Shown: positions 17,870 to 50,210 of the stretch, one piece after another
Layout of the letters: each line of letters starts with the position of its first letter
How positions within the stretch are numbered: the stretch's first letter is position 1
NCBI GenBank assembly: GCA_020002185.1
Contig: JAHLWY010000225.1
Coordinates: 1-64,000, forward strand
DNA from: Paraescarpia echinospica
Lineage: Eukaryota; Annelida; Polychaeta; Sabellida; Siboglinidae
Length of the DNA stretch: 64,000 nucleotides
Direction of reading: 5' to 3'
Position numbers and translations under genes: made by a program
The notes under the pieces: model-generated
The model's database searches: none
Told to the model about the DNA's origin: nothing
Seen by the model: only the letters and a program-made list of their open reading frames with translations

Positions 17870-18272
17870 ATCATGATGTAGACAATTTTACGACCAGCTA
17901 ACTTTTAATAAGATCGATTGGGTTGCTGAAAACACAAATTTATTCTGGTGGGCCTATGCATTGACAATTACCCTGTTTGACAACCACCTTGTCCAGGAAC
18001 CCCATGTCACGTCACCAACAAACGTTGTGAGGCGTCACACAGACAGAACATATCCAAAGAAGCATTTTTATTGTAAAACTGTTTTCTACATGTGTCGCAT
18101 TTGAAACATTCACAGCGGTACAAGTATCCACAAACAACAACCATATTTAACATACTACTGTTTCCGATCTGTTGTCCACACGTATCACATCTTAAACGTG
18201 ATGTGCGAATGTCAACACGTTTCTTTCTTGAACCATTCTTTAAAAATGACTGAGCCCCAACATATGTTATAT
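17870..18272 (-). pseudogene. Zinc-finger gene, 3' part (left of the LINE insertion)
   Basis: This segment aligns with 59265-59690, sharing ACGACCAG, ACATATCCAA, TCCACACGTATCACATCTTAAACGTG and many other blocks, and corresponds to the 3' end and degenerate terminal fingers of a minus-strand C2H2 gene. The rest of the gene resumes at 21187, after an inserted LINE. On the minus strand the cysteine-pair pattern of a finger is recognisable near 18150-18195. Confidence 0.6.
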
Positions 18273-23458: not shown

Positions 23459-24636
23459 ATGGTTCGAACGTACAAAAGAAAGTCTACACAGGGGTCGTAT
23501 GGGTCTGAACGACTGGCGTTAGCTGTAGCGGCTGTCTACGAAGGACAGAGTATACAAGGTGCAGGGGCATATTATGGAATACCAGGGCGCACACTAAAGC
23601 GCCATTGCTCTGGTGTTGTACAGCAGTTATTGCTATGGGTAGCAAGCGTTGCGTATTCTCAAGTGCCTTTGAAGCACAATTGGTAGATTATGCAAAGGAG
23701 ATGGCCAAGACAATGTACGGATTGACAACTATTGATGTTAGGCGTTTTAGCTAACGCTGTTGTCACAAAATTGGGCATACATCAACATTTTGATGACGAG
23801 CGTGGGCTAGCTGGAAAGGACTGGCTGTCAAATTTCGTGAAGCGCCACCCAGAGTTGTCGATTCGTGCGCCAATTTCCACTAGCCTGGTCCGTGTCGAAG
23901 GTTTCAACCGCGATGCAGTTGTGGCGTTTTTTGCTTTGTACAAAGATGTCCTGCAAGGAGGGGATCACAGAGCTACTGCCATTTGGAATTGCGATGAAAC
24001 TGGCTTCACGACGGTAGCGAAGGCGAGGAAGGTCGTATGGGAAACTGGAACAAGGCAGGTGCGAAAGGTTTCGAGCGGTGAGCGTGGAAAAAACAATACC
24101 GCGCTGTGCTGAATAAGCGCTGCCGGTTCTTACATTCCTCCGCTGTTTGTGTTCCCTCGCAAGAGAATGGTGGAGGCCCTCATGAACGGTGCCCCTATTG
24201 TTTCGATTGGTGCAGTGAATGATCGCGGTTCAGGCTATATCGACTCAGCTCTGTTCATGAAGTGGCTCAAACACTTCGTCGCGATTGCCGTCTGCACCAA
24301 AGACCATCCACACGTACTTCTGTTGGATGGACACGAAAGCCATAAAACGCTTGAGGCAATCGACTTCGCCCGGGAACATTGAGTCATATGGGTGACATTT
24401 CTACCACACTGCACACACCGGCTCCAACCACTCGAACGGAAATTGTTTAAGTCACTGAAGTCTGCGTTCAGCCGTTCATGTGACAACTGGCTTACATCCA
24501 GTATGATGTGATGCCATTGTTTAAGCAAGCATATAGTTCTACTGCTACAGTGCAGTCTGCCGTCAATGGATTTGGAACGTGCGGCTTATGGCCATTCAAC
24601 GACAGCAAGATCGATGCAGAATTCAATGTTCTTGAG
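23459..24636 (+). pseudogene. pogo/Tigger-like (CENP-B/DDE_1) transposase, 5' part
   Basis: From ATG 23459 an N-terminal helix-turn-helix (MVRTYKRKSTQGSYGSERLA to YYGIPGRTLKRH) resembles psq-type DNA binding. After a frameshift near 23690, a CENP-B-type HTH follows (DWLSNFVKRHPELSIR, about 23825). The DDE core has WNCDETGF (about 23985) and, after a stop at 24109, LFVFPRKRMVEALMNGAP and VLLLDGHESHK (about 24320-24345). PHCTHRLQPLE follows a TGA at 24379. The C-terminal GLWPFNDSKI block ends at 24636, where a Polinton begins; the same frame resumes at 36141. Several lesions make it inactive. Confidence 0.8.
24631..24636 (+). repeat. Target-site duplication, left (TTCTTG)
   Basis: Six bases before the AG that starts the Polinton. 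The right flank (36135-36140) is TACTTG, one mismatch. A six-base duplication is the Polinton norm. Removing the element and one copy restores a continuous reading frame in the host transposase, which independently fixes the boundary. Confidence 0.75.
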
Positions 24637-25600
24637 TAGTAAAGGCGGTGGTGTAGCGGGCATGGTTTGAATATGAGTAGAGCAAGAGCAAAGTACTCGG
24701 ATGTAGGTCAAAGGTCAAGTACCGGATGTAGGTCAAGGTCAATTATCCGGATGTATGTCAAGGTCAAATGTCAAGATCAAGTACCCGGATATATGTCAAG
24801 GTCAAAGGTAACGTGGCGCCAGTGGCGCCACCTATCGGATAGACAAAACGGATAAACTAAAACAGCGACGCGGAATTTTTTGGAACTAACATGATATGAC
24901 CAGTAGCGCCCCCTAGCGGAATTTTTTCGGAACTAAAATGAATTGACCATTGGCGCTACCTACCGGATTTTTTGTTCACTAACTGAACAAGTGGTGCCAC
25001 CTGGCGGACAAGTTGTAAACTAAATGTCCCATTACTACCGAAATTCATGCGTCTTGGTTTGACCATTAGCGCCACCTGGCGAGTTTTTTTTAGAACTAAA
25101 TTTCAATGGCGGATAGCTCATGAACTACTAGTGGTGCCACCTGGCGGATAAGTTGTGGACTAAATGTAGGAGTACTGCCAACATTCGTGTCTCTTGCACG
25201 CTTGCGTGCAATAGAGCCCCCTGACGGATAGCTCAGGAACTACAAGCATCATCCCCTAGTGGACAAGTGAGCGAACCACATATGAGTACTGCAAATATTC
25301 GTGTCTGTTGTTTTTGTCTCGTCCATAAACTCCTGGTGGATATATCATCATCAACTGAAAGAACCCCTGTTACATAAGTGGTGAACTAAATAACTACTCA
25401 GCAGTCCGCGCTTGTGTACATTCTACTCAGCAGTCCGTGCTTTTGAATTTTCTACAATCCGTGATCTTTCGGCACGTCCACGTGACTTTTCGGCACATTT
25501 ACTAACTATATAAGCGCAGTGTTTTGGCAATCGAACCGTCATTCGTATCACGACGACAGCACGGCTAACATCATCATCATCATGTTGAAGACACCCTACT
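24637..25600 (+). repeat. Polinton left terminal inverted repeat
   Basis: Matches the reverse complement of about 35200-36134. The outer 200 bases are built from tandem blocks with GGTCAAGGTCAA and ACCCGGATGTA; the next 450 bases repeat GCGCCACCTGGCGGA-like boxes spaced by AACTAAAATG text; the inner part holds CAGTCCGTGCTT and a TATA promoter and runs into the first codons of the terminal gene. The two TIRs differ by scattered substitutions and small indels, so the copy is not brand new. Confidence 0.9.
25507..25513 (+). promoter_or_regulatory. TATA box of the left terminal gene
   Basis: TATATAA followed by GCGCAGTGTTTTG, about 75 bases before the ATG at 25582. The other TIR has the same box at 35279-35285 in inverted orientation, so both outermost genes are probably driven by the same duplicated promoter. 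Confidence 0.65.
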
Positions 25601-26130
25601 ACCGACCTCGCAATGCGGCAGACTCGAGCGACGAGGACGAGCCGACGAGCTGACCCATCATGCCGGTGATCAACCGTCCTTCCGTGCCTTCGGAACCAGA
25701 CATATCAGCTCTAGAAGCAACGGTAAGCGCCGACGCCGTTATCAAGATCAGAGGTCTCCTCATCGACAGAGTACGCCAGCACACTCCCTTGTACATCGGG
25801 TGCAGGTACTGCAAGAAGCGTATGATTACCGACGACAGGGGACATTTGCAATGCGAACGACACGGTTACGTTGCCTCTGACATTCATTTCGTGGTGCGCA
25901 TGTGCTTTGTCGAGACAGCGACGGGTCGATCTATATGGCTGACTTTATTCGACCAGTGTATGGCTCTTCTCCGAGACGTGAATGCCGAGACGTTTGCTGT
26001 TATGGACGAAACGATGCAGACTTACAAACTGAACTCGTTGACGGGAACTCGTGTGTCTCTCACCATAAAGAAAACTCGACGAGATACTTACGCAAACTTC
26101 AACGTCACTCACGTGGAGGTGCTACACTAG
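25582..26130 (+). pseudogene. RPA70 C-terminal-like ssDNA-binding protein (zinc ribbon + OB fold)
   Basis: The open part is 25660-26130 (156 codons, ATG at 25660). YIGCRYCKKRM..LQCERHG gives a C-x2-C-x12-C-x2-H zinc ribbon, inside a barrel of pattern VVRMCFVETATGRSIWLTLF, then MALLRDVNAETF and VSLTIKKTRRDTYANFNVTH. This is the order of the replication factor A large-subunit C domain (ribbon inserted in an OB fold, then TG-x-WLTLF), which binds single-stranded DNA. Upstream, ATG 25582 opens 23 in-frame codons (MLKTPYYRP) shared with the gene at the other end, cut by TGA 25651-25653. Either the gene starts at 25660 or this is one more nonsense lesion. It would supply an SSB function for replication. 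Fold assignment is by pattern, not computed. Confidence 0.7.
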
Positions 26131-26176
26131 GCTCCGTATCCTGTTTCAGCCTCTCTCTGCTGTCATCCCTGCCGAT

Positions 26177-26611
26177 GTGACAATTTATACTCACGCAACC
26201 AATGTGACAACTGCCGCTCCTGTCGGCACTGGTCCGAACTTTACGCTTGAGTTTCCGGCGATGGAAATGAAGAAGACGATTGCACGTCACATAGCATATG
26301 CCATCGTCGAACTCTCGAGACGACAGTGTCTCGCTTGCGAGATAGACGATCCTAGTCAATTTCATCACGATTGTATGCTACCTGATGACATTCTAATTTA
26401 TATGCACTTTGACGAGGCTGTGGAGGCCATTAATTCAACTGCAGTGATGAAAGACTGGTTGTGTGTTTTGTTAGATGCGGGTTTGAAGCTATCCGACCTG
26501 ACGTCCAATCACTTGTGTACTATTGGGAGTTGGTTGCAAGAACCGTTTTCAGAGGAGTGGCGAAACAAATTAAAGCAAATTGTTCTGGCAGTAATGGAGG
26601 ATGATCTGTAA
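26177..26611 (+). CDS. Polinton protein with C-x2-C/HHDC zinc-like motif, unknown function
   Basis: An open frame of about 144 codons (GTG at 26177; first ATG at 26262) encodes a mostly helical acidic protein with CLACEIDDPSQFHHDC near residues 51-66, a likely zinc knot. I do not recognise the family. The start is uncertain because no ATG precedes the conserved-looking part, so the 5' end may be damaged. It ends VLAVMEDDL, and a second similar tail, VLAVMERDL plus stop, lies about 90 bases downstream (26681-26701). The same tail ends the transcription unit at the other side of the element (34.34 kb). Confidence 0.55.
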   Translation: MTIYTHATNVTTAAPVGTGPNFTLEFPAMEMKKTIARHIAYAIVELSRRQCLACEIDDPSQFHHDCMLPDDILIYMHFDEAVEAINSTAVMKDWLCVLLDAGLKLSDLTSNHLCTIGSWLQEPFSEEWRNKLKQIVLAVMEDDL

Positions 26612-26654
26612 ATAAATATGTCTTGTACACGATTAAACTTTGCAAGACCCTGTA

Positions 26655-26750
26655 TTAATGTCTAGTCTCTGGTTCTTGCAGTTATGGAGCGCGACTTGTA
26701 AATACGTTTGTGTTGTTCACGAATAAAATGTTCAAACCTTAATTTGTGTC
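26655..26750 (+). terminator. 3' end and polyA signal shared with the opposite end
   Basis: Contains TCTTGCAGTTATGGAGCG, then AATAAA at 26722-26727 and GTTCAAACCTTAATTTGTGTC. The reverse complement of 34305-34400 carries the same order with few changes (AATAAA there at 34319-34314). It probably defines the 3' end of the left terminal transcription unit. Confidence 0.6.
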
Positions 26751-26815
26751 ATTTTTTGAAGTATAAGTAGTATAAGTACCCTGCATCCCAGTTCCTTTCA
26801 TCAGTTGCGTAAAGT

Positions 26816-27517
26816 ATGGACACGAGGTTAGTTCATCCTTTTATTTGTATCGTTGCTGGGCCGACGGGTTGTGGTAAAACGACGTTTGTTGTATCTTTAC
26901 TACGTCATTCTGCCACACTCGTAAACTCACCGCCCGAAAAGATCACGTGGTGTTTCGGTGAATGGCAGACGTTGTAGTTCACGCTCTCTACGATACATCC
27001 GAACATAGAATTTGTCGAAGGTCTTCCCGATGTGTCGTCTTTCGATCCTAAAACGAGAAACTTGGTAGTTATCGACGATCTCATGTCGGAAACGGACGAG
27101 AGGGTCACCAAACTGTTTACGAAGAAGAGACATCATTGCAACACGTCCGTAATATATTTAGTGCAAAATGTATTCGTCATGTCGGCGCGAGTAAAGAGAA
27201 ACGCGTTGTGCCTTTGTCTCCTCGCTAAAGCGGATCCTGCTTTAGCCAGAGCCATCATCGACAAGGGAAAATCCGATCTGGTACACAGTCTGTGCGAGTG
27301 TGCACAGAACATATTAAAAGGGAACGTACCACTAGAGAAAGGTCACAAGACTAAATTGCGTCGGTACAAGAAGGACCTCAGAACCTTGGTCATCAGGAAA
27401 ACCGGTCTTCATAAGATGAAACGTATTCTACAGAAAGGTAGTTTCCTTACGGCCCTACTTGCTCCCTTGGCTACGTCCCTTCTAGCCCCGTTGGTGACGA
27501 CGTTGTTGCAGTCGTAA
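26816..27517 (+). pseudogene. Polinton FtsK/HerA-type genome-packaging ATPase with nonsense codon
   Basis: ATG 26816 starts 233 codons. Walker A is GPTGCGKTT (residues 15-23) and Walker B is LVVIDD (about residues 80-85), followed by RHHCNTSVIYLVQNVF, a stretch typical of the packaging ATPases of Polintons and adeno/virophage-like relatives, which drive DNA into capsids. TAG at 26975-26977 (codon 54), between the WCFGEW block and the IEFVEGLPD block, interrupts it. Length otherwise matches the family (about 220-250 aa). The C-terminus ends in a hydrophobic LLAPLATSLLAPLVTTLL tail. The next gene starts 11 bases later. Confidence 0.85.
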
Positions 27518-27527
27518 CTACACGGCT

Positions 27528-27710
27528 ATGGAGCACACAAAGAAGATGGCGCTGGTCGATCCACGTATTTTGGATAACGTTCAACTGCAACCTCCTTCGA
27601 TCAATCCTATAGGGAGTGTTCGCCATCGACATCGAAGACGTCCGGTGTCGTCACGGCGCGCAACTCATTCGGCCACACCGATGCAACACTTGCGTTGGGA
27701 ACCGTATTAA
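27528..27710 (+). pseudogene. Deletion derivative of the Polinton 'ALVDPR..WEPY' protein
   Basis: The 60 codons begin MEHTKKMALVDPR and end RPVSSRRATHSATPM..RWEPY. Both ends match the 338-codon protein on the opposite strand at 33567-32551 (TKKMALVDPR at its residue 95 or so, and the same WEPY C-terminus), but the central 200 or so residues are missing and joined without a stop. It looks like an internally deleted second copy of that gene lying between ATPase and integrase, and is unlikely to work alone. Confidence 0.65.
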
Positions 27711-27746
27711 TAGTCTTGCACGACAGGACACCAGCATTATTACGGC

Positions 27747-28859
27747 ATGTCTCCTCGCGTAGGTAAGAAGACGAAGCGTTCACACGATGCATTGAAAAGT
27801 ATTTATTACGACACGAAACTAACCGGAAGTTACGGAGGTGTTGATGCCCTGCATAGTGCTTCACGTGCTTCACATGCTTCACGTGCATCATCGAAAGAGG
27901 TGAAACGGTGGTTGTCGGAACAAGATACTTACACACTACACAAACCGGTGACATATCGTTTCAGGCGTAGACGTGTCGTAGTGGGTGGTATAAATCAACA
28001 ATGGCAGGCCGATCTTGTAGACATGTCACGTTTGAAAAGGTACAACGACGGTCACACTTTCATTTTGACCGCGATAGACGTGTTCTCCAAGAAAGCGTGT
28101 TCTGTTCCTTTGAAGAACAAATCGGGGCCGTCACTCACGACGGCGTTTCGTCGGTTGTTAAAGGATGATGGCCCACTGTCATTGTAAACAGATAATGGAA
28201 AAGAGTTTCTGAATAGGCAACTGCAAGAGTTTCTGAAAGAGAAAGGTATCCACCATTTTACGACACACAACGAAGAGACCAAGGCGTGTATCGTGGAACG
28301 TTTCAATCGTACTCTGAAGACACGTATGTGGAGATATTTCACGAAAAACCAGACGTTAAAGTACCTGGACGTATTAAACCACCTAGTCGATTCGTACAAC
28401 GACAGTTATCATAGAAGTATTGGAATGGCGCCATCTGAAGTGAACGTGATCAATCAAGAAGAGGTTTGGCAAAGGTTGTACGGAAATGAAGGACACGGAC
28501 AAGTCAAACCGGTTTTTAAAGTGGGCAGTCACGTGCGTATCAGCAAAGTCAAGAGACAATTCAAAAAAGGTTACTTACCCAACTGGAGTGACGAGATATT
28601 TACCGTCAAAATAGTTCATCGTTCCGATCCGCCTGTTTATCGTTTGATTGATGATGAAGATTCGCCGATAGAGGGAACATTTTACGAACTAGAACTACAG
28701 AAAGTGGTTGTGGCCAAGGATAAACTCTATCGTATCGAGAATGTGTTGCAGCAGCGCAAGCGAGGAAGAAAGACACCAGTCCTGGTCAAGTGGGTAGGGC
28801 ATCCCGACTCGTTTAACAGCTGGTTGGATAAGGCGTCACTCGTCGCGTATAAAGGTTAG
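27747..28859 (+). pseudogene. Polinton retroviral-like integrase with C-terminal chromodomain, nonsense codon
   Basis: From ATG 27747: an N-terminal region with KEVKRWLSEQDTYTLHKPV, then the catalytic core with WQADLVDM (first Asp, about 28008-28019), AIDVFSKK, a TDNGKEF block (second Asp, about 28188-28205) and KACIVERFNRT (Glu, about 28285-28310). At the end (about 28720-28850) LVKWVGHPDSFNSWL forms a chromodomain, which may steer insertion to modified chromatin. TAA at 28185-28187, directly before the second-Asp block, breaks the frame; coding similarity continues without a frame change. A low-complexity HSASRASHASRASS insert lies near residue 37. It would catalyse integration with six-base target duplication. 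Confidence 0.9.
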
Positions 28860-28888
28860 TACACACCAGTCGAGCCGTCATTCTTGTC

Positions 28889-29113
28889 ATGGAAGATACG
28901 ACGGACGTTCGATTCGAAAACACAGAGCTCGAAGATACCGGAAGTAACAAGAGACGTTGGGTGTTGTTTGGAAATACGTGCCCGAAATCAGAAATCGTCT
29001 TCTGCCAAATCGTCATACTGTACACCGTTATATTGTTCAGTATCTACAACCTTACTAAAGTAGACGGAAACTCTAATCTGTGGACGGCTTTGTTAAGCAG
29101 TTGCCTGGGATAA
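28889..29113 (+). pseudogene. Small single-span membrane protein of the Polinton
   Basis: ATG 28889, 74 codons: an acidic N-terminus, then a hydrophobic segment IVFCQIVILYTVILFSIYNL (residues 36-55), then SNLWTALLSSCLG. After TAA 29111-29113 the same frame continues with a Pro/basic tail to 29158, running into the next gene's start, so the stop is probably a lesion removing a short conserved tail. Similar small membrane proteins occur near the penton gene in other Polintons; their role is unknown. It lies 30 bases after the integrase. Confidence 0.6.
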
Positions 29114-29147
29114 CTGTTAACTAATCCGTCTATGAAACGCGGTGAAC

Positions 29148-30111
29148 ATGTCGTCTGATTTTTACCTGACATTGCCCAGCAACGCGTCTATGGAGTTAAA
29201 TCCCGACAACACGTTGACCCACTATGTCACGGCTTTGCCGCAACGCATCAGTTTAGTCGGTCAGTGGGAGTGCGGACAGTTGGTACCCGCACAGTTGGTA
29301 CAACGTAGGAAAGGAGGACGCGTACTTCTACTTGACTTGTCCGACGGGGGAGCGAGGGATTTACATCACCGGTGACGGCGATAGTACTCAGATTTACCGG
29401 CAAGGCACCATCCCTCACGGCATTTACAACACCGCTCACGAGTTGATGCACAACATCAACGAGGCGCTGGAGAAACTGAGCACCAATAAAGTCAAGGCCC
29501 GCCTGAAGTTCAGCTCCATCTCTAACCGGATGAAGTTGCAGCTATCGCCGGGTGTTGAATTTAACATACCCCTTCAGAGCCATCTGAAGACCATACTAGG
29601 CTTCGATTCGAGCGTGATCGTGAGCCCACCCAGCTTGACGTTCGACGGCGACGACACCGCCGTCGTCATCAGCACCGATCCCGTCGCGTATACCTACGAG
29701 TACGAGGGTCGGTATACGGTGGACATGAATCGGGGAGTCGACGCCCTGTACGTGTACACGGACCTCGTGGAACCGCGTGTGGTCGGGGATGCCGTCGTCC
29801 CTCTGTTGAGGGTTGTACCCATAGAAGGGAAACACGGAGACGTGGTGTCAAAAAGTTTTGACAATGTACAATACGTTTCCGTCTTGCACAAAGAATTTAC
29901 GACAATCGAGATCGATATAAGAGACGACACGGGACGTCGCGTATCATTCGAGCGAGGTAGAGTGACGGCAACACTTCACTTTCGACGACGCAAACCATCA
30001 TTTTTTTTAAACATGAGTCGAATCATTCTTACGAAGACTACTACGTCAGACAAGTCGGCGACGGATTGCCCGTGTTTGTTGGGGCAAGAGTACAACGAGG
30101 TCACGGTCTAG
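29148..30111 (+). pseudogene. Polinton minor capsid (penton-like) protein, frameshifted
   Basis: ATG 29148 opens with MSSDFYLTLPSNASME and DNTLTHYVTALPQRI, the start of Polinton penton proteins. The frame is lost in a short G/T-rich stretch at about 29278-29300, and the body continues in another frame from about 29290 to 30111 (TCPTGERGIYITGDG, NEALEKLSTNKVKARLKF, GVEFNIPL, VEPRVVGDAVVPLLRVVP). Single jelly-roll penton proteins form capsid vertices. C-terminal text after about 30000 (following a T8 run) overlaps the next gene. One indel separates the two parts. Family assignment is by conserved motifs. Confidence 0.8.
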
Positions 30112-30422
30112 GTAGTTTGTTCGGTGGCCTCATTCGAAGTGCTATGCCACTTATAAAAAGAGGCGCACTCGCTTTGGGAAAAGGAGCGTTAAAGACAGGT
30201 TTGGGTGTGGCCGGTGACGTGTTGTCTGGACAGAGCATTAAAGAATCTGCAAAGAGGCGTGCGAAAGAAACCGGAAAGGATATGATCAGTAGAGTGATGG
30301 GAAGCAGTGGGCCTCCGGGCATACGCAACGCTCCTGTAAAACGCAAGCCGACGAGAACCCTTGCCAGTGTCGCCAAGAAACGCAGACGACAGAAGACGCG
30401 TCGAGACAACATATTCGACTAG
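30066..30422 (+). CDS. pX/PY-like basic core peptide of the Polinton
   Basis: The open frame encodes RVQRGHGLGSLFGGLIRSAMP, then GALALGKGALKTGLGVAGDVL, an amphipathic Gly/Ala segment, and a very basic tail (KRKPTR, KKRRRQKTRRD). This fits the small basic or membrane-active core proteins of Polintons and adenovirus-like viruses (pX/pVI type). No ATG fits the frame: similarity extends upstream to about 30033 (YEDYYVRQVGDGLPVF), while the only nearby ATG (30013) is one frame off, so a one-base indel near 30015-30032 may have damaged the start. It ends two bases before the capsid ATG. Confidence 0.65.
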   Translation: MPVFVGARVQRGHGLGSLFGGLIRSAMPLIKRGALALGKGALKTGLGVAGDVLSGQSIKESAKRRAKETGKDMISRVMGSSGPPGIRNAPVKRKPTRTLASVAKKRRRQKTRRDNIFD

Positions 30423-30424
30423 AC

Positions 30425-31729
30425 ATGTCTTTTGTCCACCAGTTGTCGTGTGAGGGAGTCAAAAGCGAATTGGACCTATTTAGTTTACCGACAACACAAA
30501 CGAGTATCGAACACGCACAGTGGATCGAGCATCGACCTGTCGCCTCGATAGGTTCGGGTGGTCCTATCGAATTCTTATTGCCCGGATCGGGAGACGATTA
30601 CCTGGACGTGGCCAACACTTACCTGTTGGTGCGAGCACGTGTAGTCAAAGGAAACGGGGACGACATCGATCAAGCTGCACCTGTTGCACCAGTAAACAAC
30701 TGGATGCATTCTCTGTTTAGTCAAGTCGACGTGTCTTTGAACGGTACCCTCGTCACACCTTCAACGAATACCTATCCTTATCGAGCGTACATAGAAACGA
30801 TACTGAGTCACGGAGCAAAAGCAAAGAAGAGTCAACTGATTAGTGCCTTGTGGTACAAAGACACGGCTGAACACATGGATGCCACCGACGACGCAAACAC
30901 GGGGCTGCAAAAAAGAAAGACCTATATTTCCCGTAGTCGAATCGTCGATATGCTGGGCCGTCTACACGTCGACCTCTTCTTTCAAGACCGCTATCTATTG
31001 AACGGCGTCGACGTGAAAATTCGACTAGTACAGAGCAATAATGCTTTTGCACTCATGGCTGCTGGTGGTGACAATGCCGATTACAAAGTACGCATAGTCG
31101 AAGCAATTTTGTTTGCGCGAAAAGCTAAACTGAATCCTGCCGTACAGATGGGTCACATCAAAGCGCTACAAAAGGGAACGGCCAAGTATCCGTTGCGAAG
31201 AGTCGATTGCAAGGTATTTTCCATACCGCGCGGTGCCATGTCGCACACTCACGAAAACGTTTATTTGGGTGTCTTACCCAAGAGAATAGTCTTGTGTTGT
31301 ATAGACAACGACGCATACAACGGAACATTCGCCAAGAATCCGTTCCACGTAAAGCACAACAACTTGAACTTTCTTGCATTGTACGTCGACGGGCAACAAG
31401 TTCCAGCGAAACCACTCCAACCTAATTTCAACGATGGTTCCTACGTGAGAAGTTACAGTAGTCTATTTGCTGGAACGGGAAAGATGTTTCAAGACGAGGG
31501 AAACAACATCAGTCGTGACGAGTTTGGCAAAGGATATACCCTGTTTGCGTTTGACATCACACCAGATTGTTGTGACGGTCCCCATTTCAATTTGGTACAT
31601 AAAGGCAACCTACGAGTCGAGATGCACTTTAATCAACCTCTCGACCAAACGATCAACGTCGTCGTCTACGGAGAATTCGAGACGGTTTTGGAGATTGACC
31701 GCAACAGAAACGTCGTCTACGATTACTGA
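30425..31729 (+). CDS. Polinton major capsid protein
   Basis: An intact 434-codon frame from ATG 30425 to TGA 31727-31729. It contains DLFSLPTTQTSIEHAQWIEH, IEFLLPGSGDDYLDVANTYL, SLNGTLVTPSTNTYPYRAYI, DLFFQDRYLLNGVDVKIRL and, at the end, LRVEMHFNQPLDQTINVVVY. The pattern matches the Polinton/Maverick major capsid protein (often annotated F54H12.2-like in animals), which forms a double jelly-roll trimer. Length is on the short side for the family but all blocks are present. Its stop overlaps the protease start by one base (TGATG), and the preceding stop is two bases upstream: viral-style packing. No lesion seen. Confidence 0.88.
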   Translation: MSFVHQLSCEGVKSELDLFSLPTTQTSIEHAQWIEHRPVASIGSGGPIEFLLPGSGDDYLDVANTYLLVRARVVKGNGDDIDQAAPVAPVNNWMHSLFSQVDVSLNGTLVTPSTNTYPYRAYIETILSHGAKAKKSQLISALWYKDTAEHMDATDDANTGLQKRKTYISRSRIVDMLGRLHVDLFFQDRYLLNGVDVKIRLVQSNNAFALMAAGGDNADYKVRIVEAILFARKAKLNPAVQMGHIKALQKGTAKYPLRRVDCKVFSIPRGAMSHTHENVYLGVLPKRIVLCCIDNDAYNGTFAKNPFHVKHNNLNFLALYVDGQQVPAKPLQPNFNDGSYVRSYSSLFAGTGKMFQDEGNNISRDEFGKGYTLFAFDITPDCCDGPHFNLVHKGNLRVEMHFNQPLDQTINVVVYGEFETVLEIDRNRNVVYDY

Positions 31730-32181
31730 TGGATACGGCACAGATAGAAAGACTCCTTGCGGCGGATTATTACACTAGAACCGTTGTTCGAGGCGTACTA
31801 CCTAAAGACGGGTTACCCACTACTCCTATGACGACCTATCCGGCAGCTTTCGTGTGCAACACTCATTCGAGCAATGAACCGGGTCAACATTGGATCTGCA
31901 TGTTTATCGCAAAAGACGGACGTGGAGAATACTTCGACTCCTACGGTTTGCCACCTCGAAACGACGAATTCGTGGATTTTCTACAGAGCAACTGCGTGAC
32001 TTGGACTTTCAACAAGAGAACGCTTCAGAGCCCGCTGTCTAACGTGTGTGGACAATACTGTGTCGTGTACTTGCTGCATCGAAGTCGAGGCGTACCCACG
32101 AAGACGTTTGTGAACACTTTCGGGAACGATTTAGTGAACAATGACTGTCGTGTTTTCGATTTTGTTAAAAGTGCCATGTAA
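31729..32181 (+). CDS. Polinton adenain-like cysteine protease
   Basis: An intact 150-codon frame from ATG 31729. Catalytic His lies in PGQHWICMFI (about residue 55), the acidic residue in GEYFDSYGLPP (about residue 70), the oxyanion Gln in the following loop region, and Cys in NVCGQYCVVYLL (about residues 106-115). This is the adenovirus-type (C5-like, Ulp1 fold) maturation protease, expected to cleave capsid and core precursors. It is last in the rightward gene series and is followed by AATAAA at 32232-32237. Confidence 0.88.
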   Translation: MDTAQIERLLAADYYTRTVVRGVLPKDGLPTTPMTTYPAAFVCNTHSSNEPGQHWICMFIAKDGRGEYFDSYGLPPRNDEFVDFLQSNCVTWTFNKRTLQSPLSNVCGQYCVVYLLHRSRGVPTKTFVNTFGNDLVNNDCRVFDFVKSAM

Positions 32182-32550
32182 TGTTTGCATGTAATGTTGG
32201 CATGCACGTTCTTGTATTACCTTAATTAAGCAATAAAAAAGTCGACACCATATGTGCGTTTGTGAAATGCTTTATTCAGTCACCCAAGAGAAAGTGTCAA
32301 TCTTTTAAAATCTTCTAAACCTTAACTATATGCAAATTGATTCCATATGATAACGTTGACAAAACAATTGTTGTCAGTGAACCGGGAAAAGCGAGGTGTG
32401 TCTTGATGACTATGAAAACGAAAAAAAAAACTCTCATCCATACCATCAACACGATTTTTATTTGAATATTTCACATACGATCTCTCTTGAACACTGTTCC
32501 TGTGAATTGTATGTTCCACGCGAACCTGTTTTTGTCACACATCGGTAATA
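32182..32550. terminator. Convergent intergenic spacer with polyA signals on both strands
   Basis: AATAAA at 32232-32237 (plus) ends the rightward genes; TTTATT at 32457-32462 (AATAAA on the minus strand) ends the leftward ones. The 370 bases between hold no other gene. This is the point where the two transcription directions meet. Confidence 0.55.
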
Positions 32551-33567
32551 CTAATAGGGTTCCCAACGTGTGATTTGTAAAGGTGTCGCCGAATGAGCTG
32601 CGCGCCGTGACGACACCGGACGTCTTCGATGTTGATGACGAGCCCTGTCAAAAGGAATGCTGGTTTCCTTTGATATATCGTCGTCCACTGACGCTGTCTG
32701 CATGTATAGCCAACGATCTGAGTTCCCGACTAAATCCATTGGTGTGTTGACATCCTTGAGACCACGAGCAAAGGTTTCCCATCCCACTGGTTCAAACGAC
32801 TTCCGTTTTCTCAACACGTCATTCACAAGGTCCACGATATTACTTCCGGGAACCGCCTTGTTTCTGTACATCATCTCGCCACGATCGTTCCAACTTACGG
32901 TACCTTTCATTTTATCGAGTAGTCGCCGTGCTTTCTGCTTCATAGTTTTTGGAACGCTGTCGATGATTTCATTTTTGATACTCTCCTTTTCGACGACTTC
33001 ATTTTCGTTAGCAGGTTGTACTTTGTTTTCCCCTTCACTGGGAATTTTTTTGATGACCACACGCACGGGTTCTTGTATACGTTTGTCGGAAAGGTCGTTG
33101 TACCGACTCAATACCCGGTTATACAACACAACCTTTTCCCTCTCGTGTATATCGTTTCGTTCTAATATGCCTTGCATTTCATTGTCGAGTCGTTGCAAGA
33201 CCCTTTCGATAGGGATAGCAGTCGAACGACGTTGCGGTTGAATGTTTTCCAAAAAACGGGGATCGACCAGGGCCATCTTCTTTGTATACTCCATGGTCAC
33301 CTGAGATGGAGACGGGAATGTCGAGCTTGTTGAAGGAACCGTAGGTACATGTGTCATAGTGGGCACCTGAGTTGGAGACAAGAATGTCGAGCTTGTTGCT
33401 GGTGCCAGAGACACAGGTGTCGTAGCGTTTGTCAACGGTGCACAGCGACTGTGGGCACTGTGTCGTTTCAAGTTGTCCCGACGTGAGAAATGTCTCTTGC
33501 AATCTGGGCACTGGAACGCTGATGGTGTAGACTTGTTGGCAGCTGGTAGACTAGTCCATAAGCACAT
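32551..33567 (-). CDS. Polinton C2H2-finger/'ALVDPR..WEPY' protein, 338 aa
   Basis: From ATG 33567 leftwards: one zinc finger (FQCPDCKRHFSRRDNLKRHS, residues 18-37, with a following H-x2-C), a Ser/Thr/Pro-rich linker with two repeats of SSTF.SP.QV (residues 50-90), then a conserved-looking helical and basic part starting TKKMALVDPRFLENI (about residue 95). That part has VLYNRVLSRYNDL, a charged coiled stretch, WNDRGEMMYRNKAVPGSNIVDLVNDVLR (a globular block) and a C-terminal RRRP..WEPY. I recall such proteins only as Polinton-associated and of unknown function. The finger suggests nucleic-acid binding. A deleted copy lies at 27528-27710. The frame is intact. Confidence 0.7.
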   Translation of the reverse strand: MCLWTSLPAANKSTPSAFQCPDCKRHFSRRDNLKRHSAHSRCAPLTNATTPVSLAPATSSTFLSPTQVPTMTHVPTVPSTSSTFPSPSQVTMEYTKKMALVDPRFLENIQPQRRSTAIPIERVLQRLDNEMQGILERNDIHEREKVVLYNRVLSRYNDLSDKRIQEPVRVVIKKIPSEGENKVQPANENEVVEKESIKNEIIDSVPKTMKQKARRLLDKMKGTVSWNDRGEMMYRNKAVPGSNIVDLVNDVLRKRKSFEPVGWETFARGLKDVNTPMDLVGNSDRWLYMQTASVDDDISKETSIPFDRARHQHRRRPVSSRRAAHSATPLQITRWEPY

Positions 33568-33599
33568 GGTGTACGTGTTTACTGTTCAAATGTAAAGAA

Positions 33600-33857
33600 C
33601 GGAATGACTCTTGGCACTCGTCGGTCTAAGTTTGGTTTGTACAACTCGTTGATCTAAGTCTGATTCGTGCAATTCGTTTTATGTCTGTCTATTGTAGCGG
33701 AATTTGACGATGTGAACCTGTCCATTGTGGTGGAAGCGGTGGAATTTAACGCGATAGCCCGTCTATTGTGGTGGAATTGTGGTGGAAGCGGTGGAATCTC
33801 GCGCGATAATACGTCCATTTGCCTGAAAGAGGAGGAGGGATGTCATACAATAAAACG
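33600..33857. repeat. Degenerate GTGGTGGAAGCGGTGGAA repeats
   Basis: Blocks such as GTCCATTGTGGTGGAAGCGG and GTCTATTGTGGTGGAATTG recur two to three times between 33680 and 33830, after a direct repeat of TCGTTGATCTAAGT-like text at 33630-33660. The open frame across it is low-complexity and not supported as a gene. Confidence 0.5.
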
Positions 33858-34168
33858 TACATCTCTAGCCCTCCTCCTCCTCCTCAACGCGTCCATCTCT
33901 AGCCCTCCTCCTCCTCCTCCTCAAAGCGTCCATCTCTAGCCCTCCTCCTCCTCAACGCGTCCATCTCTAGCCCTCCTCCTCCTCCTCCTCAACGCGTCCA
34001 TATCTAGCCCTCCTCCTCCTCCTCCTCAACGAGTCCATCTCTAGCACTCTTCCTCCTCCTCCTCAACGCGTCCATCCCTAGCCCTCCTCCTCCTCCTCAA
34101 CGCGTCCATCTCTAGCCCTCCTCCTCCTCAACGCGTCCACCTCTAGCCCTCCTCCTCCTCCTCTTCAG
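33858..34168. repeat. Minisatellite of about 36 bp inside the Polinton
   Basis: About nine copies of CAACGCGTCCATCTCTAGCC followed by a variable number of CTC triplets. Copies differ mostly in CTC number and by single substitutions (ATATCTAGC, GAGTCC). It sits between the two leftward genes. Confidence 0.9.
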
Positions 34169-34200
34169 AGTGAGTGAGTGAGTGAGTGAGTGAGTGAACA
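34168..34200. repeat. (GAGT)n microsatellite
   Basis: About seven tandem GAGT units follow the minisatellite directly. After them, GAGTGATTTGAGTGATTTG continues in degenerate form. Confidence 0.9.
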
Positions 34201-34304
34201 GACACGAAGGATGAGTGAGTGATTTGAGTGATTTGTTAATCGGGACTTAGACGAGTACCTTTACTTGTGAAGTGTAAGACACGAAAAAAAGACGCAAGAT
34301 AAGG

Positions 34305-34400
34305 TTTGCACATTTTATTACAACACAAACGTATTTACATGTCACGCTCCATAACTGCAAGAATCAGAGACTGAACATTGTTTCGTCACTGCTATGACAC
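34305..34400 (-). terminator. 3' end of the right terminal gene, inverted twin of 26.7 kb
   Basis: On the minus strand: TCTTGCAGTTATGGAGCG, then AATAAA at 34319-34314, the same order as in 26655-26750. The segment also preserves a short frame ending LAVMERDM plus stop, the twin of VLAVMERDL at the left end. Confidence 0.6.
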
Positions 34401-34441
34401 AGAGTCTTGCAATGAACTGTCGACTCTACACAACGCAGTGT

Positions 34442-35231
34442 CTACAAGTAATTCTCGCGGACACTGCACAATAGTTTTCCGAGAGTGTTTCAACCATTTT
34501 TGTAGCCACGACCAAGTCCCCAAAAGCCCTCTTTCGATGGTACACGCTCCACTATTTCAGCATTTCCGGTTGCCAACAATACGGCTCGCAAATCCTTTGA
34601 CGCCTTGAACTTTGCGAGGAGCAAATGTCGCATCCAGTGAACACGGACATCGTTCCAACCAGATCTCGTCTCTCCAATCTGTTTGCATTTTTCGTTTTGC
34701 CAAGTGTGCATGCTTCGCAGCTTTGATGCGCTCTGCGCATTCGACGTCGCCGTGATACAATGCCTTCCTGTATTGATAAGCATGCTCGACCGAATTAAAG
34801 ACCCGACCGAATGCTTCGACCCTGCATGGGTAAAGGTTTGACAAGGAAGAGTCGGCCCTTGAAAATTCAACTCGTTTCGGTTTCACAGCGATCTCCGGTT
34901 CGGGTAGAGGTTCCGGTTGCGGTGCGTAGAGGCTTGACGCAACGACTGGTTGATTGACAGACGCTGAATGTGGACGGCTGGTAGATGCTTCGAACGGTCG
35001 GCTAGTTGGTTAGTCTACGTCGCTGTCGCTGAAGGCTGCAGGCGCATGGTAGTTGGGTGTTTTGAGGTTGGAGCTATCGTGGTACAACGGTGATGGAGGT
35101 CGGTTGACATCCAGTGACTGCGGTCGGGTGCCAGATGCCACGAACGGTCGGCAACACGGTTCGTCTACGTCGGTGTCGCTGAAGGCCGCAGGCGTGTGGT
35201 AGTTCGGTGTTTTCAACATGATGTTAGCCAT
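34442..35231 (-). pseudogene. NADAR-domain protein with Pro/Ser repeat N-terminus, broken
   Basis: ATG 35231 opens a frame with two repeats of LKTPNYH.PAAFSD.DVD. TAA at 35012-35010 interrupts it, after which the same frame gives a SRP/Pro/Glu-rich linker and a NADAR domain: SSLSNLYPC, FNSVEHAYQYRKALYHGD, AKHAHLAKR. A frameshift near 34655-34670 moves the rest to another frame (LLLAKFKASKDLRAVLLATG, EIVERVPSKEGFWGLGRGY); a TGA at 34492-34490 precedes an N-TLGKLL..VR end and stop 34444-34442. NADAR (YbiA-like) proteins cleave N-glycosidic bonds; some remove ADP-ribose from guanine in DNA, opposing DarT-type toxins, and others act on riboflavin intermediates. In a virus-like element, reversal of host ADP-ribosylation is plausible but inferred. 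Confidence 0.75.
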
Positions 35232-36134
35232 GGCGTCGTCGTGATACGAATGACGGGCCGATTGGTAAAACACCGCGCTTATATAGTTAGTAAATGTGCC
35301 GAAAAGTCACGTGGGCATGCCGAAAGATCACGGATTGTAGAAAATTCAAAAGCACGGACTGCTGAGTAGAATGTACACAAGCGCGGACTGCTGAGTAGTT
35401 ATTTAGTTCACCACTTATCTAACAGGGGTGCTTTCAGTTGATGATGATATATCCACCAGGAGTTTATGGACGAGACAAAAACAACAGACAAGAATATTTG
35501 CAGTACTCATATGTGGTTCGCTCACTTGTCCACTAGGGGATGATGTTTGTAGTTCCTGAGCTATCCGTCATGGGGATCTATTGCACGAAAGCGTGCAAGA
35601 GACACGAATGTTAGCAGTACTCCTACATTTAGTCCACAACTTATCCGCCAGGTGGCACCACTCGTAGTTCATGACCTATCCCCATGGGACATTTAGTTAG
35701 AAAAAATTCCGCCAGGTGGCTCTAATGGTCAAACCAAGACGCACGAATTTGGGCAGTACTTGAACATTTTGTTTACAACTTGTTCGCCAGGTGGCACCAC
35801 TTGTTCAGCTAGTCAACAATTCCGATAGGTGGCGCCAATGGTTAATCCATGATAGTTCCGAAAAATTAAGCTAGGAGGCGCTACTTGTCATTTTAGTTCC
35901 AAAAAATTCCGCCATGTTGCGCTGTTTTAGTTTATGACCTATCCGATAGGTGGCGCCACTAGCGCCACGTGGCCTTTGACCTCCATCCGGGTATTGGACA
36001 TTTGACCTATATCCGGGTACTTGACCTTGACCTACATCCGATTACTTGTCCTTGACCTTGACCTACATCCGGGTACTTTGCTCTTGCTCTACTCATACTC
36101 AAACCATGCCCGTTACACCACCGCCTTTACTACT
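35200..36134 (-). repeat. Polinton right terminal inverted repeat
   Basis: Inverse of 24637-25600, ending CCGCCTTTACTACT. Motif order is the same: TATA box and CAGTCCGCGCTT inside, GCCAGGTGGC boxes in the middle, TGACCTTGACCTACATCC blocks outside. The repeat extends past the promoter into the first codons of the NADAR gene. Confidence 0.9.
35279..35285 (-). promoter_or_regulatory. TATA box of the right terminal gene
   Basis: TATATAA on the minus strand followed by GCGCGGTGTTTT, about 48 bases before ATG 35231; twin of 25507-25513. Confidence 0.65.
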
Positions 36135-36140
36135 TACTTG
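36135..36140 (+). repeat. Target-site duplication, right (TACTTG)
   Basis: Directly follows the element's terminal CT; pairs with TTCTTG at 24631-24636 (one mismatch). Confidence 0.75.
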
Positions 36141-36290
36141 AATTGTCGTTCATTCAGCCTTTCGATACTCCTCAAGTCACAGCTCTGGATGTTGTCGTCA
36201 GTGAGGTTGCCGGCACCCGAGTCACTACCTGTACATCTCCGGCAATCTCAGCACCACACCACCCCATAGAAACCAGCTCTCGAAGCTCCA
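36141..36290 (+). pseudogene. pogo/Tigger-like transposase, C-terminal part
   Basis: LSFIQPFDTPQVTALDVVVS continues the transposase frame that stops at 24636. If the Polinton and one TSD copy are removed, the codons run on without a break, which supports both assignments. At about 36290 the sequence changes abruptly into a zinc-finger array on the minus strand, so the transposase 3' end is truncated at that junction. Confidence 0.7.
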
Positions 36291-48344: not shown

Positions 48345-50210
48345 AAGCCTAGTCAGTTTAGAAACTTTCATTTTTCATATCCAAGAATCATGTTAAATTA
48401 CCTGGTAGAGGCTTTCGTTGACGTGTCACGCCGACTTCATCAGTACCTATGACGCTGAATTACGTCATCGTACACGTGAGGCAGTTCGTAATTGCCCTCG
48501 TCTCTGTTGATGGGTGTTTTGGTTTATCTGATCCAGATGGCTTCTTTGATATGCCGAATTCTTCTGTTGGTTTCTTTGTCTACAATTTTCACTTCCTCCC
48601 AGTCTATGATATGGTTTTCAGTTGTCGTATGGTCTGTAAGGGCGGATTTATTGATGGTAGACATCAATCTTTTTTTCCCGCTCCTTGTGTATTTCTCATT
48701 TTTCGTGTTGTCTACGTCCTTTCTGTGTTCCTCCAGGCTTGTTTTGAGTAGTCTTCCTGTCTCTCCAATGTATCCCCCACCACAATTCTTGCACGGTATT
48801 TGGAACACCAGTTCGCCCTGTTCTTCTAGTTGTACTTTGTCCTTGGGATGTACCAACAGGTGCCTGAGGGTGGTGTGGGGACGCATGGCCGTTGCTACTC
48901 CATACTTTTTCAGTACTCGATGTACTCTCTCTGAGACCCCCTCTATGTATGGAATGACTACTTGGCTCCGATTGTTTTTGTCCTTAGTCTTTTTGTTGGT
49001 CTTTTTCCTCTTACTGCTATCTGTCACCTTTTTCAAGGCCCACGACGGATAGCCACATACTCTTAGAGCTCCTCTCAGGTGTTCCATCTCTTCTTTCTTG
49101 TCCCCCTCCTCCGAAGTTATTGTCTCACACCTGTTCATAAGGGTTCTGACAACTCCCAACTTCTGTTGTTTGGGGTGGTGGGATGCAAAATTCAGGTATT
49201 GGTCAGTGTGCGTCTTCTTCCTGTACACTGTGGACTTCACACTGCCATCTTCCTTTCTGGTGAACTTTGCATCCAAGAAGGGCATGCTGTTGTTCTCTTC
49301 GTCTTCCCGCGTGAAAATTATGCTACCTGTGGGGTCTACAGTGTTCATGTGTTGTTGTACTTTCTTTGCCTTTCCTGTGTGTACCAGGCAAATTACATCG
49401 TCCACATATCGCTTCCAGTTTCTCGGTTGGCAATCGACTGGTGCTGTGGCTATGATTTTCTGCTCCAGGTCCTCCATGTACAGGTTCACAACAATGGGGG
49501 ACACTGGACTGCCCATGGCTACCCCAAACTTCTGTTGGTAAATTTATCCTCCAAATCTGAAGTATGTCGTCTCCAAGACAACTTTCAACAACTCCATGAT
49601 GTCGTCTACGTTTACATTTGTTCTCTTCTTTAGTGTCTTGTCATTCTCTAGACTTTTTCAGATGACTTTGCAAGCTTCTCTGATTGGGGTCTTCGTGAAC
49701 AGTGACACAACGTCATATGACACAAATTATTCTCCTTCTTCCATTCTCAGCTTTGTCATTTCTTTCACCAATTCTTGTGAATTTTCCGTATGGTGTTCTG
49801 TTTTTCCAACAAGTGGTTGTAGTATGTTGGCCAATTCTCTGGATACTCTGTATGCTATTGTCTGTGTGTAGTCGACAATTGGTCTGAGTGGCACCTTCTC
49901 TTTGTTGATTTTTGGTGATCCATACATCCGTGGTACTTTTTCTAGCGTAGGATATAAGTACCAGTACTGATCTTTGGTGATCTTCCCCTCCTTCTCCAAG
50001 GAATTTACCATTCTGATGAGTTCTGCCTTTTACGAACTGCCTCACGTGTACGATGACGTCATTCAGCGTCATAGGTACTGATGAAGTCGGCGTGACACGT
50101 CAACGAAAGCCTCTACCAGGTAATTTAACATTATTCTTGGATATGAAAAATGAAAGTTTCTAATTTGAAAACGAACTATCCTGAAGAATGTTCAGTAAAG
50201 CCTAGTCAGT
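48345..50210 (-). mobile_element. Penelope-like element with inverted terminal repeats
   Basis: Flanked by AAGCCTAGTCAGT at 48345-48357 and 50198-50210 (13-base TSD, exact). The ends 48360-48490 and 50031-50161 are an inverted repeat of about 130 bases with only a couple of mismatches. Between them, on the minus strand, lie reverse transcriptase and GIY-YIG endonuclease. The unit interrupts the segmental duplicate, whose text resumes at 50211. Confidence 0.88.
48524..50072 (-). pseudogene. Penelope reverse transcriptase + GIY-YIG endonuclease
   Basis: The N-terminal part lies at 50072-49713 (MYGSPKINKEKVPLRPIVDY, the start of the RT fingers); 49713-49520 is frameshifted. The open main part is 49516-48524: MGSPVSPIVVNLYMEDLE, catalytic RYVDDVICLVHTG, FLDAKFTRKEDGS, thumb region, then IPCKNCGGGYIGETGR followed by an Arg and LEEHRKDV, the GIY-YIG nuclease with its YIGETGR core. 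Order and motifs define Penelope-like retroelements, which prime on nicked DNA or telomeres. Two or more indels inactivate it. Confidence 0.85.

What the first reader, a model, noticed from the sequence alone, without database searches (positions are those of the whole stretch)
34442..35231. NADAR-domain gene as Polinton cargo
SSLSNLYPC, VEHAYQYRKALYHGD and, after a frameshift, EIVERVPSKEGFWGLGRG are a NADAR/YbiA signature. NADAR enzymes can remove ADP-ribose from nucleic acid or act on riboflavin intermediates, and are known in phages and giant viruses. In an animal virus-like transposon this suggests a counter to host ADP-ribosylation defence. The long N-terminal Pro/Ser repeat tail is an unusual fusion.
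Basis: partly seen in the sequence, partly recalled or inferred. Interest (0 to 1): 0.85.

Follow-up and report, generated by a model that had tools for sequence, protein, structure and literature searches.

The report
NADAR enzyme gene carried by Polintons
A gene of the NADAR enzyme family, predicted to strip ADP-ribose off DNA, is broken in this window but open in 47 of 50 sister copies read from the same genome, all 50 with genes or repeats of virus-like transposons (Polinton type) beside them, where it would probably shield the transposon's own DNA from a host defence.

Summary
The minus-strand gene at 35231-34442 carries a NADAR domain split over two frames, with two further in-frame stops, in an 11.5 kb PolB-less Polinton-like element (24635-36134, (AGT)2//(ACT)2 ends). 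It is not a one-off cargo. The window's genome (1.08 Gb) gives 2556 NADAR candidates; 150 were scored and all 150 exceed the Pfam cut-off. I read 50 of these: 50 of 50 have Polinton-type genes or the element's inverted repeat in the 3.4-5 kb read, and 47 of 50 have an open NADAR frame. Two groups: A (TIR-linked, like the window) and B (NADAR beside the packaging ATPase, 21 of 21). Selection looks purifying (median dN/dS 0.28-0.29; group B shifted-frame controls 1.25-1.35); five of six active-site residues are invariant in 47 of 47. In group A the gene fills an end cassette that alternates with an RPA-like gene; in 5 of 52 loci NADAR directly follows an RPA-like domain. I infer removal of ADP-ribose from element DNA, probably guanine; activity is untested. 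NADAR is reported from phages, giant viruses, RNA viruses, Gypsy and Tx1 elements; my searches found no report from Polintons.

The parts
24635..36134 (.). PolB-less Polinton-like element, 11,500 bp, flanked by TTCTTG / TACTTG (5 of 6 match)
   Evidence: ends AGTAGT...ACTACT
24635..25574 (+). left terminal inverted repeat; reaches almost to the start of the RPA-like gene
   Evidence: left against right arm 830 matches, 107 mismatches, 37 gap columns
35218..36134 (-). right terminal inverted repeat; includes the start of the NADAR gene
25582..26130 (+). RPA-like gene, first frame (zinc-ribbon OB domain); broken here by an in-frame stop just before 25654
   Evidence: PF08646 E 3.3e-6, 27.4 bits, cut-off 28.5; two related frames 28.5 and 35.9 bits
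26069..26611 (+). RPA-like gene, second overlapping frame (C-terminal module)
26817..27517 (+). packaging-ATPase-like gene with GPTGCGKTT motif, broken into frames (label from motif, gene order and recall; no profile match)
   Evidence: motif; no ATPase match; relatives beside NADAR in other copies
27747..28859 (+). retroviral-type integrase with chromodomain, one in-frame stop at 28185-28187
   Evidence: PF00665 E 3.5e-4 and 1.4e-3 and PF00385 E 5.2e-4, all under Pfam cut-offs; integrases of known structure, best E 0.0035
30425..31729 (+). predicted major capsid protein, open frame (label from gene order and recall; no profile match)
   Evidence: 97 copies listed in the genome
31729..32181 (+). 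adenovirus-type cysteine protease, open frame
   Evidence: PF00770 E 0.0013, 18.9 bits, cut-off 21.3
32551..33585 (-). C2H2 plus 'MALVDPR' protein gene (called LVDPR in this report), open frame, next to the NADAR gene
34442..35231 (-). NADAR gene: tail about 35231-34880, domain about 34880-34442; broken by two in-frame stops and one frame change
34764..34787 (-). active-site pair E (34785-34787) and K (34764-34766), equal to E43 and K50 of P. nicotianae NADAR
   Evidence: alignment; residue roles from PMC11543638 (passages)
34520..34657 (-). W 34655-34657, R 34643-34645, subfamily-defining E 34547-34549, W 34520-34522 (W89, R93, E125, W133 equivalents)
   Evidence: alignments
34320..34379 (-). 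3' flank, 92% identical to 26657-26716 behind the RPA-like gene; an AATAAA follows in both

Best explanation
This is a decayed copy of a NADAR gene that belongs to PolB-less Polinton-like elements, and its enzyme is predicted to cut ADP-ribose off bases, most likely guanine, of the element's own single-stranded DNA and so would keep that DNA copyable in the host nucleus. Shown by calls: the domain, its place in the elements, the conserved active-site residues, dN/dS well under 1 between copies, two diverged groups of copies that keep it, and its exchange or direct neighbourhood with an RPA-like module. Inferred: enzymatic activity, guanine as target, ssDNA as the place of action, and a host ADP-ribosyltransferase as the opponent. 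How the RPA-linked form is expressed (splicing or frameshift) is unresolved.
Against: No activity was measured and the window's own copy is broken. NADARs that all cleave guanosine-ADPr in vitro differ in whether they protect cells, so the true target cannot be read from sequence (PMC11125620, passages). One ligand residue differs (R79 to K). The RPA and NADAR frames need a splice or frameshift to form one protein, and the RPA frame is broken in 2 of the 5. The class A shifted-frame control had only 5 and 1 usable pairs (0.40 and 0.49), so it is uninformative; the class B 95th percentile of dN/dS is 0.99; pairs are not independent. 48 of 97 capsid loci show neither a listed NADAR nor a listed RPA at either end (lists capped). 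Class B copies lack the window-type TIR in the stretches read (21 of 21).
Confidence: 0.5

Rival explanations
1. The enzyme hydrolyses small soluble ADP-ribose compounds (cyclic or linear signals, or by-products of RNA repair) made by the host during defence, not DNA adducts.
For: Proposed for viral NADAR domains in general in PMC9503650 (passages). The same active-site residues would serve.
Against: The cassette alternates with, and in 5 of 52 loci read directly follows, an RPA-like module, which points to DNA. No gene for a soluble signal was named among the 16 element frames scanned with Pfam.
Confidence: 0.17
2. [quoted passage not shown]
For: PMC9503650 argues this for eukaryotic RNA viruses (passages). 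Structure matches among viral models include RNA-virus polyproteins (Ingleside virus, Wenling nido-like virus 1, Gill-associated virus).
Against: No protein target of a NADAR is established in the passages read; the RPA link favours DNA.
Confidence: 0.13
3. NADAR serves transposition itself: it clears ADP-ribose laid on DNA ends or intermediates during integration or repair, with no arms race.
For: NADAR was recruited by unrelated transposons, brown-alga Gypsy and oyster Tx1 LINEs, where a role in processing the RNA intermediate was suggested (PMC12477816, passages).
Against: Cannot be separated from the best explanation by sequence; it differs only in who adds the ADP-ribose and why.
Confidence: 0.12
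4. A YbiA-type N-glycosidase of reactive riboflavin intermediates.
For: YbiA-type glutamate and the best structure match to YbiA.
Against: Animals do not make riboflavin (general knowledge; that the host is an animal is itself untested). It would not explain retention in transposons beside an RPA-like module.
Confidence: 0.03
5. A passenger fragment of a host gene without use to the element.
For: The window copy is broken.
Against: dN/dS well under 1, invariant residues, place beside element genes in two groups, 50 of 50 read copies in element context.
Confidence: 0.03

Closest known systems
YbiA-type NADAR enzymes of E. coli and phages (YbiA, PDB 2b3w)
   Same: fold, active-site E, K and W, and the YbiA-type glutamate; 30% identity in the structure alignment; phage proteins up to 42% identical in the 15 rows listed of 659 records and in the 80 kept of 288 IMG/VR relatives
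   Different: lies in a eukaryotic transposon in many copies, with a Pro/Ser tail or an RPA-like frame in front; no transferase gene named beside it
Phytophthora nicotianae NADAR (PDB 8bau)
   Different: R79 is K here; the Phytophthora protein has an extension of the fold (PMC11543638, passages)
DarT1-NADAR toxin-antitoxin operons
   Same: NADAR acting on guanine-ADPr DNA would be the same chemistry
   Different: DarT1-linked NADARs use D where this family has E (PMC11543638, passages); no DarT-like gene named next to it
NADAR domains in Gypsy (Ectocarpus) and Tx1 LINE ORF1 (Crassostrea gigas)
   Same: NADAR recruited by eukaryotic transposons, YbiA type (PMC12477816, passages)
   Different: retrotransposons with NADAR inside Pol or ORF1; here a virus-like DNA element with a separate gene or RPA-linked form. 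Sequences were not compared
Polintons/Mavericks of vertebrates
   Same: (AGT)2//(ACT)2 ends, inverted repeats, 6-bp duplication (5 of 6 here), integrase, ATPase, protease and capsid genes, accessory regions at the ends (PMC8097293 and PMC4028283, passages)
   Different: no PolB, 11.5 kb (intact vertebrate ones 12.7-24.6 kb), NADAR and RPA-like genes at the ends

Membership tests
NADAR superfamily (PF08719) | profile match over the curated cut-off | tested here: met
   window C-piece 48.5 bits, N-piece 25.2 (cut-off 35.1); 150 of 150 scored genomic copies over cut-off
NADAR superfamily (PF08719) | YbiA fold | tested here: met
NADAR superfamily (PF08719) | conserved E and K of the active site (E43, K50) | tested here: met
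   window codons; 47 of 47 open frames
NADAR, YbiA subfamily | glutamate at the E125 position (D in the BC4488 group, H in the phage type) | tested here: met
   window 34547-34549 is E; 47 of 47 open frames E
NADAR superfamily (PF08719) | ADP-ribosyl-guanine hydrolase activity | not testable with these tools
   needs purified protein
Polinton/Maverick | inverted repeats with (AGT)2//(ACT)2 ends | tested here: met
Polinton/Maverick | 6-bp target site duplication | tested here: inconclusive
   TTCTTG / TACTTG, 5 of 6
Polinton/Maverick | rve-type integrase | tested here: met
   two collinear pieces, E 3.5e-4 and 1.4e-3, each under the Pfam cut-off; integrase structures, best E 0.0035; so met on weak single matches that agree
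Polinton/Maverick | packaging ATPase and adenovirus-type protease | tested here: inconclusive
   P-loop motif seen but no ATPase profile match; protease 18.9 bits, cut-off 21.3
Polinton/Maverick | double jelly-roll major capsid protein | tested here: inconclusive
   no profile or PDB match; single-sequence model failed, pLDDT 29.8
Polinton/Maverick | protein-primed PolB | tested here: not met
   no match in the window at E<=0.01 with a PolB frame of the same genome. So I file it as a PolB-less Polinton-like element, not as a full Polinton
DarT-NADAR toxin-antitoxin system | adjacent ADP-ribosyltransferase gene | tested here: not met
   no Pfam match to a transferase at E<=1 among the 16 element frames scanned (10, 6)

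The most novel reading that the evidence does not exclude
PolB-less Polinton-like elements that borrow replication carry a DNA-guarding end cassette: an RPA-like ssDNA-binding domain and a NADAR ADP-ribose eraser, swapped or joined at the element ends, that undoes guanine ADP-ribosylation by a host DNA-ADP-ribosyltransferase defence. It would be a eukaryotic counterpart of the bacterial DarT-NADAR arms race, played out in a high-copy element family.
Probability: 0.3. Interest if true: 0.9.

Novelty: new variant of a known kind. Interest (0 to 1): 0.72.

Why it matters
The natural role of eukaryotic NADARs is open (PMC11125620 says so in the passages read). Here a NADAR is kept, apparently by selection, in a selfish DNA element, next to or alternating with an ssDNA-binding-type module, which gives a concrete and testable substrate. 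If true, it implies that some hosts mark invading DNA by ADP-ribosylation, a defence described in bacteria (DarT systems, PMC11543638 abstract) and, as far as I know, unproven in animals.

Tried and rejected
The capsid model alone failed. Rfam found nothing in 24600-36200. An IQ-TREE run timed out; FastTree on a thinned set was used instead.

Not done: 100 of the 150 listed NADAR loci were not read with flanks (two of these 100 were read in short stretches, L133 and L134). The 50 were the 8 best-scoring, 20 picked by me over open-frame classes, the next 20 in rank and 2 from the end of the list, so not a random sample; L133 and L134 were picked because their frame length suggested the RPA-linked form. 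A search for host macro domains did not complete. A search with the inverted repeat as DNA did not complete. Host transferases were not searched for. The host was not identified.

Full report
Observation. On the minus strand, 35231 down to 34442, two overlapping frames carry the two halves of a NADAR domain. The C-terminal half passes the Pfam cut-off (48.5 against 35.1 bits); the N-terminal half does not on its own (25.2 bits). Against the relative P0001 they are 85% (55/65) and 89% (59/66) identical and meet at residue 94. The gene is broken by that frame change and by two in-frame stops, 35010-35012 and 34490-34492. The next best match to P0001 in the window has E 0.90, and 0 of 200 Markov-resampled loci match at 1e-3.

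Relatives in protein collections. The C-piece found 3 proteins, the N-piece 5, and P0001 as query 11 (itself included) at E<=1e-3. The next group (P0007-P0010) is only 35-39% identical by BLASTP to P0001. In IMG/VR an alignment found 288 relatives, 80 kept, none over 42.2% identical.

The element. The gene is the last one inside an 11,500-bp element, 24635-36134, with long inverted repeats (830 matches, 107 mismatches, 37 gap columns), AGTAGT...ACTACT ends, and flanks TTCTTG/TACTTG. The same doubled AGT/ACT ends and 6-bp duplications are described for vertebrate Mavericks (PMC8097293, passages). It has an integrase with chromodomain and a C5-type protease (each match under its Pfam cut-off), a P-loop ATPase-like gene, and capsid-like genes; the capsid, penton and ATPase labels rest on motif, gene order and recall, because no profile matched and the single-sequence capsid model failed. 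There is no PolB. Since PolB is in the set that defines Polintons (PMC4028283, passages), I call it a PolB-less Polinton-like element. Several genes are broken (RPA-like, ATPase, integrase, penton-like, NADAR), and the arms differ by about 11%, so this insertion is probably old; the capsid, protease and C2H2 frames are still open.

Sister copies. A NADAR search of the window's own genome found 2556 candidates and scored 150; all 150 exceed the cut-off and 139 of 150 have no stop. I read 50 of these 150 with flanks (3.4-5 kb each; chosen as told under Tried and rejected). By identity to the window's pieces, 29 are class A (80% or more) and 21 class B (printed hits 51-71%). In 50 of 50 a Polinton-type gene or the window-type inverted repeat is in the stretch: class A 26 with both, 2 with repeat only, 1 with gene only; class B 21 with a gene and none with the window-type repeat, with the ATPase in 21 of 21, LVDPR in 20 and the integrase in 16. 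NADAR, ATPase, LVDPR and integrase follow each other on one strand in 15 of the 21 class B loci; one (L129) has another arrangement. Independently, 34 of 150 listed NADAR copies lie within 12 kb of the 97 listed capsid copies, 0.34 expected: 26 upstream on the same strand, 7 downstream on the opposite strand as in the window, 1 downstream on the same strand.

Selection and active site. Of 50 loci read, 47 have an open domain frame; L107, L109 and L125 have one stop each. The E43, K50, W89, E125 and W133 equivalents are invariant in 47 of 47; R93 is kept in 45 of 47. Residue roles are from PMC11543638 (passages). Median pairwise dN/dS is 0.283 in class A (27 sequences, 146 usable pairs) and 0.292 in class B (18 sequences, 104 pairs; 95th percentile 0.99); a first run gave 0.284 and 0.281. 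Reading class B one or two bases later gives 1.35 and 1.25, while that control failed in class A for want of usable pairs (5 and 1; 0.40 and 0.49). The tail gives 0.50 (19 sequences, 89 pairs). Pairs are not independent, so these are descriptions, not tests. A FastTree of 77 sequences (10 of 27 class A and all 20 class B open frames) groups classes A and B with P0001/P0002 at support 1.0 against the sampled phage, YbiA and Phytophthora proteins; class B is not monophyletic. Some copies look young: L103, L126 and L127 have identical domain sequences, and so do L105 and L106, the two ends of one element.

The cassette. In the window the left end holds an RPA-like gene (PF08646, E 3.3e-6, just under cut-off; two related frames level with and over it) and the right end holds NADAR. 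They share the repeat, the first codons and the 3' flank. Around the 97 listed capsid copies I find, left/right: NADAR/RPA 13, RPA/NADAR 2 (one is the window, whose NADAR is not among the listed 150 and was entered by hand), NADAR/NADAR 2, RPA/RPA 1, one end known 31, none listed 48; the NADAR and RPA lists are capped at 150 each, so these are lower bounds. In five loci (L110, L114, L122 of the first 50, and L133, L134 picked for it) the NADAR frame follows an RPA-like frame at the same junction where the window's RPA-like gene passes into its second frame; the RPA frame is open in three, L110, L114 and L133. A stop closes that first frame in the window and in these three, so a splice or a frameshift would be needed; 11 frame-keeping GT..AG pairs of 31-250 nt exist in L110, which proves nothing.

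PolB. The same genome has many PolB frames (5421 candidates, 64 listed; the Pfam model alone gave only 3). Two were read (L131, L132), and each lies beside an ATPase gene 73% and 83% identical to the window's in the matched part. 0 of the 64 lie within 20 kb of a listed NADAR or window-type capsid copy, and no PolB match was seen in the 50 NADAR loci. The NADAR elements may therefore borrow replication. This is inference from capped lists and short flanks.

Mechanism. I infer an ADP-ribose eraser acting on element DNA. All NADARs tested in PMC11125620 cleave guanosine-ADPr and none thymidine-ADPr (passages), the RPA-like module ties this family to single-stranded DNA, and guanine-specific DNA ADP-ribosylating activity exists in clams (CARP-1; PMC11209040, passages). 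The host here is unnamed, so the last point is a lead. Soluble-signal and RNA/protein targets remain open (PMC9503650, passages).

Print. Searches for NADAR with Polinton (0 papers), NADAR/Maverick/transpos (10 of 924 listed), 'NADAR domain' with transposon (3 papers), Polinton with ADP-ribos (5 papers) and a mixed search (15 of 152 listed) showed no report of NADAR in Polintons in the held library; listings were seen, and passages of some papers. The survey of viral NAD-ADPr systems names phages, NCLDVs and RNA viruses, and the words Polinton, Maverick and adintovir do not occur in its main text. The nearest prior art is NADAR in Gypsy and Tx1 retrotransposons (PMC12477816, passages).

Noticed in passing
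window 27528-27712 and 32549-33294: A short gene behind the ATPase repeats the start and the end of the C2H2/'MALVDPR' gene with the middle missing (inverted matches I3 and I5, 81% and 86%).
   Followed up: no
window 25582-26611; L110, L114, L133: The RPA-like gene is laid out in two overlapping frames with a stop closing the first at the same place in these four copies, which suggests a programmed frameshift or a very short intron.
   Followed up: partly
L131, L132 (genome C5 and C12): PolB-bearing elements with a related ATPase occur in the same genome, but none of 64 listed PolB copies is within 20 kb of a listed NADAR copy.
   Followed up: partly
window 33856-34197; L081, L083: A tandem-repeat block, ending in GAGT units, lies between the NADAR and C2H2 genes; L081 and L083 have long frames of THSL repeats, which an ACTC/GAGT array would give, behind or beside their NADAR gene.
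   Followed up: no
L105 and L106 (genome C8:13146847 and 13155490): One element carries identical NADAR domain frames at both ends, pointing inward.
   Followed up: partly
L084, 1483-1866 and 2010-2392: Two diverged NADAR copies in tandem in front of an ATPase.
   Followed up: no
P0006 and P0011 (longest contig 96,125 bases for both), P0012: NADAR fragments next to a repeated HVECVYATFSS-like unit.
   Followed up: no
window 23726-24109, 18105-20846, 48524-49543: Other mobile genes: a weak Tc5-type transposase piece just left of the element, a LINE with endonuclease and reverse transcriptase, and a reverse transcriptase frame with a weak GIY-YIG match, perhaps Penelope-like (recalled).
   Followed up: no
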